A stretch of 42,209 nucleotides of DNA from Bacteroidaceae bacterium (lineage in GTDB: Bacteria > Bacteroidota > Bacteroidia > Bacteroidales > Bacteroidaceae): assembly GCA_017427065.1 (NCBI GenBank), contig JAFRTL010000001.1, positions 1 through 42,209 on the forward strand. The letters run 5' to 3'. Below the pieces are notes generated by a model that saw only the letters and a program-made list of their open reading frames with translations, made no database searches and had not been told where the DNA came from. Position numbers and translations under genes: made by a program. How positions within the stretch are numbered: position 1 is the stretch's first letter; the number at the start of each line of letters is the position of its first letter. This document shows, in pieces, positions 9,212 to 13,229 of the stretch.

Positions 9212-10123
9212 TTATACTTCCAAGGCGCCTATAATCTCTTTAACAGAGTGGTACCCATGTCTATCCAAATAGGCATTTATTCCTTCTGCCACTTTCACAG
9301 TCACAGCAGGATCAATAAAGTTGGCAGTTCCTATTTCAATGGCAGTGGCTCCTGCTAAAAGGAAAGCGATGGCATCATCGGCATTCATGATACCTCCTAA
9401 GCCTACTACAGGTACACCAACAGCTTTGGCTACCTGCCACACCATTCTTAACGCCACCGGCTTAATGGCTGGTCCTGACAATCCTCCTGTCACAGTAGAA
9501 AGAATAGGCTTCCGCTTCTCAACATCGATGGCCATACCTAGCATCGTATTGATTAAGGAAACGGCATCGGCACCTGCACCTTCCACAGCCTTGGCGATTT
9601 CTGTGATATCAGTCACATTAGGCGTCAATTTCACGATAAGCGTTTTCTTATAGGCTTTTCTTACAGCGCTTACCACCTCTGCTGCTGCTTGAGGCTGAAC
9701 CCCGAACGTCATACCTCCATGCTTGACGTTGGGACAAGAAATATTCAATTCTATGGCAGGAATCTTTTCTAAATCATTGATAATAGCCGCAGTTTCTGCA
9801 TAATCCTCTACACAAGAACCAGATACATTCACGATCATCTGACTGTCGATGCCTTTGATTCTCGGATAAATATGGTCAACAAAATAATGCACGCCCTTAT
9901 TCTGCAAGCCAACGGCATTCAACATGCCTGAAGGGGTTTCTGCCATACGTGGATAGGGATTTCCCTCGCGTTTATGTAATGTCGTACCTTTGACAATAAT
10001 GCCTCCAATAGCTGAAAGGTCAACCAAATCAGCAAATTCCTCTCCATATCCAAATGTACCAGAAGCGGTCATCACCGGATTCTTTAGAGCCAGGTTTCCG
10101 ATATTAACTCTTAAATCTGCCAT
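9212..10123 (-). CDS. pyrD: dihydroorotate dehydrogenase, class 1B catalytic subunit PyrD
   Basis: FMN enzyme oxidising dihydroorotate to orotate in de novo pyrimidine synthesis, using NAD+ through its PyrK partner. The 303-residue barrel shows [11 protein letters not shown], the catalytic Cys in [11 protein letters not shown] (class 1 enzymes use Cys as base), and the FMN phosphate-binding region [11 protein letters not shown]. It overlaps the end of pyrK by 13 bp, consistent with translational coupling of the two subunits and a class 1B (rather than quinone-linked class 2) enzyme. Confidence 0.95.
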
Positions 10124-10890
10124 AATAGATCATTTATATTGAAAACAGGACCTTCTTTACAAACACAGACATTTCCTTCTTTGGTATTCTCCACACAACA
10201 AAGGCATGCCCCTAAGCCACAAGCCATTTTATTTTCCAGTGAAACTTCGCAAGGAATAGCGTTGGTTTTCGCATATTTGGCAACAGAAACCATCATCGGT
10301 TTGGGACCACAACAATAGATATTGTTGAATTTGACACTATTCAGTACTGAATGCTGTGTAACAAAGCCTTTTTCACCCATACTACCATCTTCTGTAGTGG
10401 TCAAAACAGTACCATAACGTTTAAAATCATCAAGCATCAAGAGGTCGGCACCCGTTTTTGCTCCTAAGATAAATGAAACATCGCTATACCCAAGACGTTT
10501 CAATTCTGCTCCGAAGTAGAGCAATGGCGCCACGCCAACACCTCCACCAACCAGAAGGACCTTATTTTGCTTATTTTCAGGCATCGTAAAGCCATTTCCT
10601 AGAGGAAAGAGTATGTTCACCTTATCACCCTCTGCCAAAGCGCTTAAACGCTTGGTTCCAGCACCAATGATTTGTATAAGCAACCACAATTGATTGGCAT
10701 CTCTGTCGACAAAATTCACAGAAATAGGTCTTCTCAAGAAGGTAGAAGGGGAGTCATCTACACGCACTTCCACAAATTGACCAGGAAGGATGTCGGGCAA
10801 AGGATCCTCTTGTGTCAGTTTCAATAACACGTGCCTGCTGTTAAGTTTCACTTTTTCGGCAACGGTTAGATCTCGTAGGTATTTTTTCAT
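10111..10890 (-). CDS. pyrK: dihydroorotate dehydrogenase electron-transfer subunit PyrK
   Basis: FAD and [2Fe-2S] subunit passing electrons from PyrD to NAD+. The 259 residues show a ferredoxin-reductase-like FAD domain (TFLRRPISV), a nucleotide-binding part ([14 protein letters not shown]) and the C-terminal Cys cluster ([10 protein letters not shown], then [10 protein letters not shown]) that ligates 2Fe-2S. The frame extends to a TTG at 10911, but that codon lies in the -7 element at 10909-10916; ATG at 10890 is preferred. First gene of the pyrK-pyrD operon. Confidence 0.95.
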
Positions 10891-10908
10891 GCTTTGATTA
10901 TTTTGATG

Positions 10909-10965: not shown

Positions 10966-11427
10966 TTATTGATTTTTTGTTGGCGTAAATGTCTCGTAGG
11001 TGTTGTCATCAAAGAAAATTCTTATTTCCGTAATTTTCCTGACAGGCCTTTCTTTATAAATAATCTCTTGTTTTACATAGCTTTTTGCATCCTTTGGCTC
11101 TTCTTTAAACCCTATTTCCTTGCGATTTTCCTGCACATTCGTATCAATGGCAAGATTTACGGCATTCTCGTCCATTTCAAGTAGGCCTTCAGCTTCAATG
11201 TTGGACGATAGGCCTGCATCTCCTTCGCCTAAGAGCAACCATTGCATACTGACGTCAGGATAACGATTATGCAATCTAAGCAAAACTTCTGTACTTGGGT
11301 ACTTATTTCTACCATTTAGAATATGTGTAATGGTGGCAGGAGACACTCCGATGCTATCTGCGAATGCTCCAGCAGTGAGGTTTTCCCTATCCATTATCAT
11401 TTTAACGCGATCTCTGATGTCTTCCAT
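10966..11427 (-). CDS. XRE-type helix-turn-helix regulator
   Basis: A 153-residue protein with an N-terminal Cro/CI-like HTH domain (about 1-60): LTAGAFADSIGVSPATITHILNGRNKYP spans the two recognition helices, followed by VSMQWLLLGEGD, a common ending for such domains in Bacteroidales. The C-terminal 80 residues are charged with a short basic-rich tail and no recognised domain. The frame runs up to a TTG at 11436; ATG at 11427 is preferred. Upstream lies a good promoter (TTTG at 11495-11498, TACTTTTG at 11467-11474, 20-bp spacing) overlapped by copies of TTTACAAA, so autoregulation through that motif is plausible. Target genes are unknown. It is not accompanied by phage genes, so I take it for a chromosomal regulator. 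Confidence 0.85.
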   Translation of the reverse strand: MEDIRDRVKMIMDRENLTAGAFADSIGVSPATITHILNGRNKYPSTEVLLRLHNRYPDVSMQWLLLGEGDAGLSSNIEAEGLLEMDENAVNLAIDTNVQENRKEIGFKEEPKDAKSYVKQEIIYKERPVRKITEIRIFFDDNTYETFTPTKNQ

Positions 11428-11466
11428 AAAAATCAAATTACAAATGTTTACAAATAATTGCTTTCA

Positions 11467-11498
11467 CAAAAGTAAACATTAGGTTTTACAAAAGCAAA
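11467..11498 (-). promoter_or_regulatory. promoter of the HTH gene with embedded motif copy
   Basis: On the minus strand TTTG (11498-11495) and TACTTTTG (11474-11467) are 20 bp apart, a full -33/-7 match. The octamer TTTACAAA at 11485-11492 lies in the spacer and another at 11447-11454 lies just past the predicted start, as expected for repressor sites. Confidence 0.65.
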
Positions 11499-11906
11499 CG
11501 AAAAATGTAAAAATAATAAATTTACAAAAGTTGCATACATTTTACATAAATAACATCCGGAAAGGAAAAGTTTGTAAAAACAAAGAAAATAAACCTATAT
11601 TTTAATGCATTAAATAGCAGCATAATATTGGGTATTAGGCATTTACAAATTTCAATCTTACAATAAAGACAAAATCGTACAATTGTATTACGCGAAACCA
11701 TCGACTATTTGTAAGCATAATTATACAAATCAAACTAATTATCTGGGCTTCACCTATTTACTTAGTAAAAATAACCATCTTAATTGAACTAAGGAAATAT
11801 TTGTAAATACATAAGAAAAGATGTGGTTTACAAATGTGCATTTACTTATGTATTTTCAAGGATTAACAATATTGTTTATTTGAAGTGACTAGAATCACCA
11901 TTTATG

Positions 11907-11946
11907 TAAATTTGCAATCTTAAAGATAAATGTTAATGTTAAGATT
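11907..11946 (+). promoter_or_regulatory. possible plus-strand promoter and inverted repeat in the intergenic region
   Basis: TAAATTTG (11907-11914) fits the -7 consensus; a TTTG at 11879-11882 is 24 bp upstream, too far for a good -33. An 8-bp inverted repeat AATCTTAA (11916-11923) / TTAAGATT (11939-11946) overlaps the expected transcript start. It would drive a short transcript containing the small frame at 11973. Confidence 0.35.
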
Positions 11947-11972
11947 TTAGGGTATTATTTGTCATTACAAGA

Positions 11973-12098
11973 ATGAAAGTTAACTGCAAGTTTGACACCA
12001 TATCAGAGAGACTGCTGTACTTCCGTTGTATTACCTCTATTTTTCTGGATTCTTTACAATTATTCCCTACAAATACTCGAATGCTGAGGATTATTTGA
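11973..12098 (+). CDS. speculative 41-residue small protein
   Basis: ATG at 11973 opens a 41-codon frame ending in TGA at 12098, starting MKVNCKFDTISERLLYFRC. It lies about 50 nt behind the possible promoter at 11907-11914. There is no recognised family, no clear ribosome binding site and no signal peptide. In an AT-rich region a frame of this length can arise by chance; conservation would be needed to accept it. Confidence 0.2.
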   Translation: MKVNCKFDTISERLLYFRCITSIFLDSLQLFPTNTRMLRII

Positions 12099-12209
12099 TT
12101 CTCGTGAACTTATAATTTACCTAATATGCAGAATAATAGGCACTTATCCCCTCTTTTCAATGTATAGAATTAGTTTGAAGTAGAAAAATCTGCAGATTTA
12201 CAACAGAAT

Positions 12210-13229
12210 TTAATGAAGAATCTTAAAAATAAGCTCCTTTAGAAGGTCACCAACTTCAATACTGGGATTTCCCACGCCTTTGGACTTTGCGTCAGTATAT
12301 CTGATTTCATGAATAATGTTCATGGTCTTCACGCCAGAATACTTTTTCATAGCAATGATGTAATCTTTTGCTTGCCATGAAGTTTTAAATCCCAAAAAAG
12401 CAGCCACCCCACTCTCTGTTTTTTCAGGAGCATAATAAGCCAACATAAGATTGGAAAAGAAATTGAAAAGGAATCCTAAAGTCACCTGAATAGGATTACT
12501 CTTTGGATTCTCCTCAAAATACTTTATTATCTTATTGGCTTTAAGGATGTCTTTCTGAATAATGGCATTCCGAAGCTCAATATTATTGTAGTCTTTACTT
12601 ATGCCGATGTTTTTCTCAATTTGTTCAGGCGTAATGTATTCTTGTCCTTCTGGATGTGTAATGATCAATTTATCAAGTTCGCCTGCCATTCTGCTAAGGT
12701 CGGATCCAACAAAGTCGGCCATCATCTCTGTAGCCTTTGAATCTATCTTCAGACCTTTTTGAGCGACATAGTTGTTGATAAACTGAGGTAACTGACTTTC
12801 TTTTAGCTTTTTCGATTCATAAAGCACTCCCACCTTACTGATATCAGAAGCCACTTTTTTGCGCTTATCCAACGTACCATTCTTATGACAAATCACCAGG
12901 ATGGTAGAATTCAAAGGTTTCTGAAGGTAGATGGAAAGATTCTCCATACCTTTCACAACTTGAGCTTCTTTTACAACTACCAAGCGATATTCAGACATCA
13001 TTGGATAGCGTCTTGCGGTGTTGATGATGCCATTGATATCTACGTCTGCCCCATAAAGCACATCCAGGTTGAAATCCTTTTCTATCTCCGTAAGTACATT
13101 GTCCAACAGATAGTTAGTCAGCTGATCAATATAATAAGGCTCATCCCCCATTAAGTAATAGATAGGACGGAATTTCCTTTCTTTCAGATCCTTCAAGATG
13201 TCAGAATATGTGAGTTCCTGGGCAGCCAT
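12210..13229 (-). CDS. holA: DNA polymerase III subunit delta HolA
   Basis: Clamp-loader subunit that opens the sliding clamp during replication. The 339-residue protein begins with the family's typical N-terminal pattern (RPIYYLMGDEPYYIDQLTNYLLD, residues about 17-39), carries the LVVVKEAQ strand and ends with the helical C-terminal domain that packs in the clamp-loader collar. It lies 9 bp downstream of amn on the same strand and is probably co-transcribed with it. No terminator hairpin is evident right after its stop. Confidence 0.93.
   Translation of the reverse strand: MAAQELTYSDILKDLKERKFRPIYYLMGDEPYYIDQLTNYLLDNVLTEIEKDFNLDVLYGADVDINGIINTARRYPMMSEYRLVVVKEAQVVKGMENLSIYLQKPLNSTILVICHKNGTLDKRKKVASDISKVGVLYESKKLKESQLPQFINNYVAQKGLKIDSKATEMMADFVGSDLSRMAGELDKLIITHPEGQEYITPEQIEKNIGISKDYNNIELRNAIIQKDILKANKIIKYFEENPKSNPIQVTLGFLFNFFSNLMLAYYAPEKTESGVAAFLGFKTSWQAKDYIIAMKKYSGVKTMNIIHEIRYTDAKSKGVGNPSIEVGDLLKELIFKILH

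What the first reader, a model, noticed from the sequence alone, without database searches (positions are those of the whole stretch)
11428..12209. Array of TTTACAAA motifs upstream of an XRE-type regulator
Seven exact copies of TTTACAAA/TTTGTAAA lie within about 390 bp (11447-11834), five in one orientation and two in the other, plus four further TACAAA/TTTGTA cores. With roughly 36% A, 36% T and 14% C, a rough chance expectation is about 0.1 exact octamers in that length. One copy lies between the -33 and -7 of the regulator's promoter (11467-11498), another just after the expected start. This fits autoregulation by the HTH protein, but the array is far longer than one operator needs, which hints at cooperative loading, a spread regulatory domain, or a site with another role. 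Note that TTTG is also part of the promoter consensus, so some copies may be promoter elements.
Basis: partly seen in the sequence, partly recalled or inferred. Interest (0 to 1): 0.75.

Follow-up and report, generated by a model that had tools for sequence, protein, structure and literature searches.

The report
Repeated operator array upstream of repressor
A small DNA-binding gene in a Bacteroides genome sits beside about nine copies of one 14-letter DNA site, and most of its sampled relatives in other families have similar clusters, so the gene probably controls itself through an unusually large and old array.

Summary
Confirmed and extended. Seven TTTACAAA/TTTGTAAA octamers lie in the 782-bp holA–xre spacer; 0 of 2000 dinucleotide shuffles reach seven. 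The octamer is half of the real unit, a 14-bp pseudo-palindrome WTYACAAWWGTRAW. The window has 9 sites of 8 bits or more; 66 Bacteroides-group spacers average 11.7 against 1.04 in shuffles, laid out as a proximal block, one middle position and a distal block, with 20 of 771 sites beyond -600. The two best window sites, 22 bp apart, cover the -7 and -33 boxes of the xre promoter. The same matrix finds 5.1 sites upstream of 69 homologs outside the genus against 0.65 for permuted matrices, 24 of them from other orders of the class, also where neighbours differ, so the array follows xre. Most likely: cooperative autorepression by the XRE protein (434/P22-like HTH, disordered linker, conserved C-terminal hairpin). 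Binding, repression and looping are inferred. xre precedes a dihydroorotate dehydrogenase of either of two classes in 25 of 70 loci outside the genus. No report found in ten paper searches. New variant of a known kind.

The parts
10969..11427 (-). xre: 153-aa XRE/Cro-CI-type regulator (P0001), HTH at residues 4-66, disordered linker, C-terminal beta-hairpin at 135-147; stop codon at 10966-10968
   Evidence: Pfam HTH_3 1e-07 and Phage_CI_repr 5.1e-05; AlphaFold2 model; match in 59 of 60 genus genomes searched
11428..12209 (.). holA-xre spacer holding the operator array
   Evidence: 9 sites of 8 bits or more; shuffles of this spacer average 0.81, maximum 5 of 500; column-permuted matrices average 0.85, maximum 6 of 500; synteny holA-xre-pyrK in 65 of 80 named loci
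11467..11474 (-). -7 promoter element TACTTTTG (TAnnTTTG) of xre
   Evidence: consensus as quoted in passages of PMC7366714; promoter of this kind (TTG-N18-23-TAnnTTTG) in the last 140 bp of 65 of 66 spacers against 2.7 in shuffles
11495..11498 (-). -33 promoter element TTTG of xre
   Evidence: and sequence
11434..11453 (+). operator site, 12.1 bits, centre 16 bp from ATG
   Evidence: also found by model R1
11460..11479 (+). best operator site, 16.1 bits (core TTCACAAAAGTAAA 11463-11476), over the -7 box, centre 42 bp from ATG
11482..11501 (+). operator site, 14.8 bits, over the -33 box, centre 64 bp from ATG, 22 bp from the previous site
11538..11557 (+). operator site, 9.9 bits, end of proximal block
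11673..11692 (-). operator site, 10.0 bits, the isolated middle site (centre at -255)
   Evidence: position peak at -250..-300
11803..11822 (+). operator site, 8.3 bits, distal block
11824..11843 (+). operator site, 13.7 bits, distal block
11838..11857 (-). operator site, 12.6 bits, distal block, 14 bp from the previous site
11961..11980 (+). operator site, 8.8 bits, outer end of distal block (centre at -543)
10111..10893 (-). pyrK, dihydroorotate dehydrogenase electron-transfer subunit, downstream of xre in the same direction
9212..10123 (-). pyrD, dihydroorotate dehydrogenase (class 1 family)
12210..13229 (-). holA, DNA polymerase III delta subunit, upstream neighbour in the same direction

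Best explanation
The array is a cooperative autoregulatory operator region of the XRE protein encoded by the adjacent gene. SHOWN by sequence: about nine 14-bp pseudo-palindromic sites, the two best lying on the -7 and -33 boxes of the xre promoter, in a layout shared across the Bacteroides group and accompanying most sampled xre homologs in other families and orders of the class. INFERRED: XRE dimers bind these sites; proximal occupancy excludes sigma-ABfr RNA polymerase and shuts off xre (and pyrKD where co-transcribed); the distal block lets dimers assemble side by side and across the site-poor gap, through the flexible linker and C-terminal hairpin, into a looped or wrapped complex that makes repression steep. 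Such a circuit would hold the XRE level in a narrow range. The input signal is unknown; the frequent downstream dihydroorotate dehydrogenase suggests pyrimidine status or respiration.
For: Motif found de novo as 8-mers in 66 spacers (ACAAATGT 93 against 5.5, CAATTGTA 87 against 6.2) and again in the last 450 bp of 69 loci outside the genus (ACAAATGT 126 against 5.0). Window 9 sites; 8 when the matrix is rebuilt without the window (762 sites, chosen with the earlier matrix), against 0.81 in shuffles, maximum 5 of 500. All 7 window hits of model R1 with E of 10 or less lie in the array. 69 loci: mean 5.13 sites against 0.65 for 200 column-permuted matrices, maximum 2.55; 45 loci of the same order average 5.67 and 24 of other orders 4.12. 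Sites persist where neighbours differ: of 44 loci without a dihydroorotate dehydrogenase downstream, 35 have three or more. 20 paralogous XRE genes: 0.9 per 700 bp. Promoter within 140 bp in 65 of 66 spacers against 2.7. Preferred distances between sites, 13-15 and 22 bp in the training spacers, 12-14, 22-24 and 33-35 elsewhere. HTH like P22 c2, SinR and 434; hairpin pLDDT about 91.
Against: No binding or expression data. The loci outside the genus were the best-scoring hits of two searches or hand-picked, not a random draw; 3 of 69 have no site and 10 of 69 fewer than three. The strict consensus is insensitive: it finds one site in the window's array, three in that of B. fragilis and none in the arrays of two other genomes. 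The one-mismatch consensus is above its reversed control in B. fragilis (255 against 160) and slightly in the window's genome (136 against 113), so a wider regulon is possible. One paralog control reached 4 sites, and the paralogs' DNA is less AT-rich than the spacers. No structure shows the hairpin oligomerising. Spacings in the Bacteroides group are partly inherited positions, not independent events. The distal block has no consistent promoter of its own, so its role is guessed.
Confidence: 0.7

Rival explanations
1. The sites are bound by XRE, but the main purpose is control of the downstream dihydroorotate dehydrogenase genes (pyrimidine synthesis), with autoregulation a by-product of a shared operon.
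For: Of 70 loci outside the genus, xre is followed in the same direction by pyrK-pyrD (class 1B) in 12 and by pyrD without pyrK in 13, read as quinone-type; the type was confirmed by NCBIfam for two of the 13, L111 and L119. Two unlike enzymes at one place suggest a functional tie.
Against: 44 of the 70 loci have no dihydroorotate dehydrogenase downstream (one more had too short a flank), and 35 of these 44 still have three or more sites. Whether xre and pyrK form one transcript was not tested; the median gap between the two protein matches is 85 bp in 77 named loci.
Confidence: 0.2
2. The array is an architectural or chromosome-maintenance locus (centromere-like or nucleoid anchor), with XRE as a structural protein that nucleates on it.
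For: Number and preferred spacing of sites; no second cluster in the places listed (the last two list only the first 100 places); widespread gene (59 of 60 genomes in the genus, 105 of 119 in the order at E of 0.001 or less); holA as neighbour in the Bacteroides group.
Against: Position relative to dnaA varies (about 0.32, 0.12 and 0.28 of the chromosome in three genomes). holA was not found beside xre in most loci outside the genus, although many of these had only short flanks. The strongest window sites sit on a promoter. A ParA partner was not searched for; none is among the neighbours named.
Confidence: 0.08
3. The motifs are multiple promoters: TAnnTTTG -7 boxes plus flanks, read by sigma-ABfr, not operators.
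For: In gene orientation the motif contains TAnnTTTG; within 125 bp of the start 231 of 274 sites are in that orientation. Of 20 fetched stretches around solitary strict matches, 8 have the match 9-55 bp upstream of an ORF.
Against: The motif is palindromic beyond the promoter consensus; distal sites face both ways (164 and 159); a -33/-7 pair recurs mainly at the proximal end.
Confidence: 0.07
4. Another regulator, not XRE, binds the sites and controls xre among other genes.
For: Solitary consensus matches elsewhere, and 255 one-mismatch matches in B. fragilis against 160 for the control.
Against: The cluster follows the xre gene through changes of neighbours and orders of the class; no other cluster appears in the lists (first 100 places only for 24 and 25).
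Confidence: 0.12

Closest known systems
Phage CI/c2-type repressors with clustered operators (434, P22, lambda; coliphage 186 CI)
   Same: HTH fold (closest Foldseek hits P22 c2, SinR, 434); short palindromic operators overlapping the gene's own promoter (recalled for these phages); for 186 CI, distal sites used in regulation and a C-terminal domain forming a wheel-like 14-mer (passages of PMC8053113)
   Different: Chromosomal gene, not phage (3 weak relatives in the IMG/VR scan; 1 phage record); no Pfam domain after the HTH, only a linker and hairpin; 5 to 18 sites per spacer instead of a few
Autoregulated XRE regulators with a palindromic site upstream of their own gene, surveyed in PMC12565409 (passages seen)
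   Same: XRE protein, palindromic motif upstream of its own reading frame
   Different: The strings Bacteroid, TTACA and ACAAATG do not occur in that main text (figures and supplements not seen); array size, two-block layout and breadth of conservation
Xre-RES toxin-antitoxin autoregulation (PMC12204516, abstract and outline seen)
   Same: Xre protein, palindromic repeats, higher-order DNA binding, autorepression
   Different: No RES toxin among the named neighbours; many more sites
SinR/HigA/HipB HTH proteins
   Same: HTH domain similarity by profile and fold
   Different: None of three family members tested reaches an NCBIfam cut-off; neighbours named are not toxins

Membership tests
XRE/Cro-CI-type HTH transcriptional regulator | HTH_3/Cro-CI DNA-binding domain | tested here: met
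   Pfam HTH_3 32.3 bits over cut-off 23; Phage_CI_repr 24 over 22; HTH region mostly at pLDDT of 90 or more
XRE/Cro-CI-type HTH transcriptional regulator | binds DNA as a dimer at a palindromic operator | not testable with these tools
   palindromic conserved sites are consistent; no binding assay
Autoregulatory operator array | repeated sites overlapping the regulator's own promoter | tested here: met
   sites over -7 and -33; promoter in the last 140 bp of 65 of 66 spacers
Autoregulatory operator array | repression of own transcription | not testable with these tools
   needs a reporter or knockout
Phage CI repressor | located in a prophage | tested here: not met
   chromosomal context holA-xre-pyrK conserved in 65 of 80 named loci; rare and weak in the viral collections searched
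Phage CI repressor | C-terminal S24 peptidase or comparable oligomerisation domain | tested here: not met
   no Pfam domain beyond the HTH; only linker and beta-hairpin in the model
Type II toxin-antitoxin antitoxin (HigA, HipB, Xre of Xre-RES) | adjacent toxin gene | tested here: not met
   neighbours are pyrK, pyrD and holA
Centromere/partition site | near the replication origin | tested here: not met
   variable distance to dnaA in three genomes; that dnaA marks the origin is assumed
Centromere/partition site | ParA-type partner | not tested
   no search for ParA was made

The most novel reading that the evidence does not exclude
A class-wide core DNA-binding protein that acts mainly at one chromosomal place: it nucleates on a conserved array of up to 18 operators beside its own gene through a tethered C-terminal hairpin and builds a wrapped or looped nucleoprotein body. 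That would be a minimal, non-phage, autoregulatory higher-order assembly, possibly coupled to dihydroorotate dehydrogenase and pyrimidine supply.
Probability: 0.2. Interest if true: 0.82.

Novelty: new variant of a known kind. Interest (0 to 1): 0.6.

Why it matters
If the protein binds these sites, Bacteroides and many relatives share an old regulator whose main visible target is its own promoter, read through an array several times larger than classic repressors use (the comparison is recalled). That raises a testable question: why keep about a dozen operators on roughly 600 bp of DNA for so long? It also gives a ready consensus (TTTACAAATGTAAA) for a widespread transcription factor of these bacteria, and a lead to pyrimidine control, since the gene is often followed by a dihydroorotate dehydrogenase of either of two classes.

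Tried and rejected
Octamer as the unit: replaced by the 14-bp site. Hidden ORF or known RNA in the spacer: among the ORFs of 30 aa or more in 11 spacers none recurs by eye (no homology test); no Rfam match in 8 loci or in the window spacer. Phage origin: rejected. Origin-linked role: not supported. Genome scan with a 16-nt sequence model: empty, underpowered, shows nothing. Helical phasing: only a weak periodogram signal near 7 and 11 bp. Regulon from solitary strict sites: of 27 places outside the array in four genomes I fetched 20; 9 lie inside ORFs, 8 lie 9-55 bp upstream of one, 3 elsewhere; no ORF is shared between stretches except in L146/L149 (a DJ-1/PfpI gene, an HxlR regulator and one more ORF); left open. 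Second conserved element near -700: no consensus RNA fold in 18 sequences.

Rows dropped before counts. Training spacers: 80 named loci gave 65 with holA inside the flank, 15 dropped; near-identical species pairs were kept, and records titled Mediterranea, Prevotellaceae and Tannerellaceae are among them. Set outside the genus: 77 loci, minus 3 of the genus, 4 duplicates and 1 with under 150 bp upstream, left 69; no test region repeats a training spacer (8 short BLASTN hits, 35-81 bp).

Literature: ten searches showed no report of this array or of this protein in their listings; only open-licence papers are held.

Full report
Observation. The seven octamers and four extra cores are present, two of the four cores outside 11447-11834. 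The cluster is far above chance: 7 in the 782-bp spacer against 0.32 in dinucleotide shuffles, 0 of 2000 reaching 7. The octamer is not enriched in the genome as a whole (152 against 136 for the reversed control); it is concentrated here.

Gene context. The gene at 10969-11427 (minus) is a 153-aa XRE-type protein. Order in the direction of transcription: holA, 782-bp spacer, xre, pyrK, pyrD. Of 80 named loci, 65 have holA upstream and pyrK downstream; 77 have pyrK downstream; several of the rest have short flanks. Spacers measure 551-1549 bp, median 991.5. The gene has a strong match in 59 of 60 genus genomes searched. At E of 0.001 or less, 105 of 119 genomes of the order and 69 of 149 sampled from the class have a match; at that threshold weaker XRE relatives are included, so these are upper bounds for orthologs.

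The real unit. In 66 spacers (the window plus 65 of the 80 named loci) the most enriched 8-mers include ACAAATGT (93 against 5.5 in shuffles), CAATTGTA (87 against 6.2) and ACAAAAGT (75 against 5.5); TTTACAAA has 69 against 15.5. Expectation-maximisation from three seeds gave the same 14-bp pseudo-palindrome WTYACAAWWGTRAW, one half nearly invariant. At 8 bits the spacers average 11.68 sites against 1.04 in shuffles, range 5 to 18; the window has 9, and 8 when the matrix is rebuilt without the window's own sites (the 762 training sites were chosen with the earlier matrix, so this is not fully independent). Controls on the window spacer: shuffles average 0.81, maximum 5 of 500; column-permuted matrices average 0.85, maximum 6 of 500. 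A separate sequence model searched over the whole 42-kb window gave 7 hits with E of 10 or less, all inside the array. The window outside the array holds 7 sites of 8 bits or more, no two within 600 bp.

Architecture. Pooled over 66 spacers, 771 sites form a proximal block (0 to -175), an isolated position at -250 to -300, and a distal block (-350 to -600); 20 of 771 lie farther out although many spacers continue for hundreds of bases. Adjacent sites are most often 22 bp apart, then 13-15; all pairs show peaks at 13-15, 22, 35-36, 43 and 56-58. In loci outside the genus adjacent gaps peak at about 13, 22-24 and 34-35. The Bacteroides-group distances are partly shared ancestry. The two best window sites, 16.1 and 14.8 bits and 22 bp apart, lie on the -7 (TACTTTTG, 11467-11474) and -33 (TTTG, 11495-11498) boxes. 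A promoter of this type lies within 140 bp of the start in 65 of 66 spacers against 2.7 in shuffles. The consensus TAnnTTTG / TTTG is as quoted in passages of PMC7366714. Within 125 bp of the start 231 of 274 sites read so that the operator contains TAnnTTTG in the gene's direction; distal sites face both ways, 164 and 159. The distal block carries no consistent promoter.

Test outside the genus. The matrix, trained on the 66 spacers only, was applied to upstream regions of homologs from other genera, families and orders: 73 loci average 5.29 sites per up to 700 bp against 0.80 in shuffles; after removing four duplicates, 69 loci average 5.14, 59 have three or more, 3 have none. Two hundred column-permuted matrices average 0.65, maximum 2.55. 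Split by kinship, 45 loci of the same order average 5.67 (40 with three or more) and 24 of other orders 4.12 (19 with three or more). De novo 8-mers in the last 450 bp of these loci give ACAAATGT 126 against 5.0 and CAAATGTA 104 against 3.3. Twenty paralogous XRE genes average 0.9 sites per 700 bp, maximum 4, but their DNA (57-75% AT) is less AT-rich than the spacers.

The array follows xre, not its neighbours. Of 70 loci outside the genus, 12 have pyrK-pyrD downstream, 13 have pyrD without pyrK (read as quinone-type; two confirmed by NCBIfam), 44 neither, and 1 was too short. Three or more sites occur in 10 of 12, 13 of 13 and 35 of 44 of these groups. Nine of the 44 have nucleoside diphosphate kinase convergent instead (one confirmed). 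The tie to dihydroorotate dehydrogenase is therefore frequent but not general.

Other sites in the genome. The strict consensus gives 5, 8, 10 and 13 matches in four genomes against 2, 7, 13 and 23 for the reversed control. Its only cluster is at this locus in B. fragilis (three matches); it finds one site in the window's array and none in the arrays of the other two, so it is insensitive. With one mismatch, the window's genome has 136 against 113 and B. fragilis 255 against 160; the first 100 places listed for each show no other cluster of comparable density, and the rest were not listed. Extra targets are therefore possible. Twenty of 27 solitary places were fetched and share no gene except one pair.

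Protein. AlphaFold2 gives a confident HTH (4-66), a low-confidence linker (lowest at 75-114) and a confident C-terminal hairpin (135-147), pTM 0.46; the hairpin sequence RKITEIRIFFDDNTYETF is highly conserved in 50 aligned members. Foldseek finds P22 c2, SinR and 434 HTH domains first, best E 6.5e-03, none at 0.001 or less. Oligomerisation by the hairpin is a guess.

Mechanism. I propose cooperative autorepression: XRE dimers occupy the proximal sites and exclude RNA polymerase, while the distal block and the tethered hairpin allow lateral or looped assembly. Functional comparison: phage 186 CI uses distal sites and a C-terminal wheel (passages of PMC8053113; that paper's own looping test of 186 CI was inconclusive). 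This may work like such repressors; it is not one of them (not in a prophage, no such C-terminal domain). Distances to dnaA of roughly 1.64 Mb of 5.20, 0.74 of 5.98 and 1.45 of 5.26 argue against an origin-linked role.

Novelty. Autoregulated XRE proteins with a palindromic upstream site are known (passages of PMC12565409; abstract of PMC12204516). I found no report of this array in the listings of ten searches (named under tried and rejected). What looks new is size, layout and breadth of conservation.

Noticed in passing
L087:1775-1869 and 17 further loci; about 650-710 bp upstream of xre in most: A second conserved element, AGCCTCTGAGAATCG...GCAAGGATTT, outside the array in 25 of 66 Bacteroides-group spacers by a loose criterion; no consensus RNA structure in 18 of them. 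Only a weak trace in the window spacer.
   Followed up: partly
L111, L113, L119, L192, L194, L203 and others, downstream of xre: Of 70 loci outside the genus, xre is followed by a pyrD without pyrK in 13 and by the pair pyrK-pyrD in 12, as if one enzyme class replaced the other in place.
   Followed up: partly
L114, L121, L185, L187, L191, L197, L201, L204, L207: In these nine loci xre lies convergent to nucleoside diphosphate kinase, another nucleotide-metabolism gene.
   Followed up: no
L146:1509 and L149:1478: A strict operator match is conserved in two Bacteroides genomes between a DJ-1/PfpI gene and a divergent HxlR regulator: a possible second target.
   Followed up: partly
L024 and L025, L106: Three xre relatives show an internal stop codon in the reported match; possibly frame or boundary effects.
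   Followed up: no
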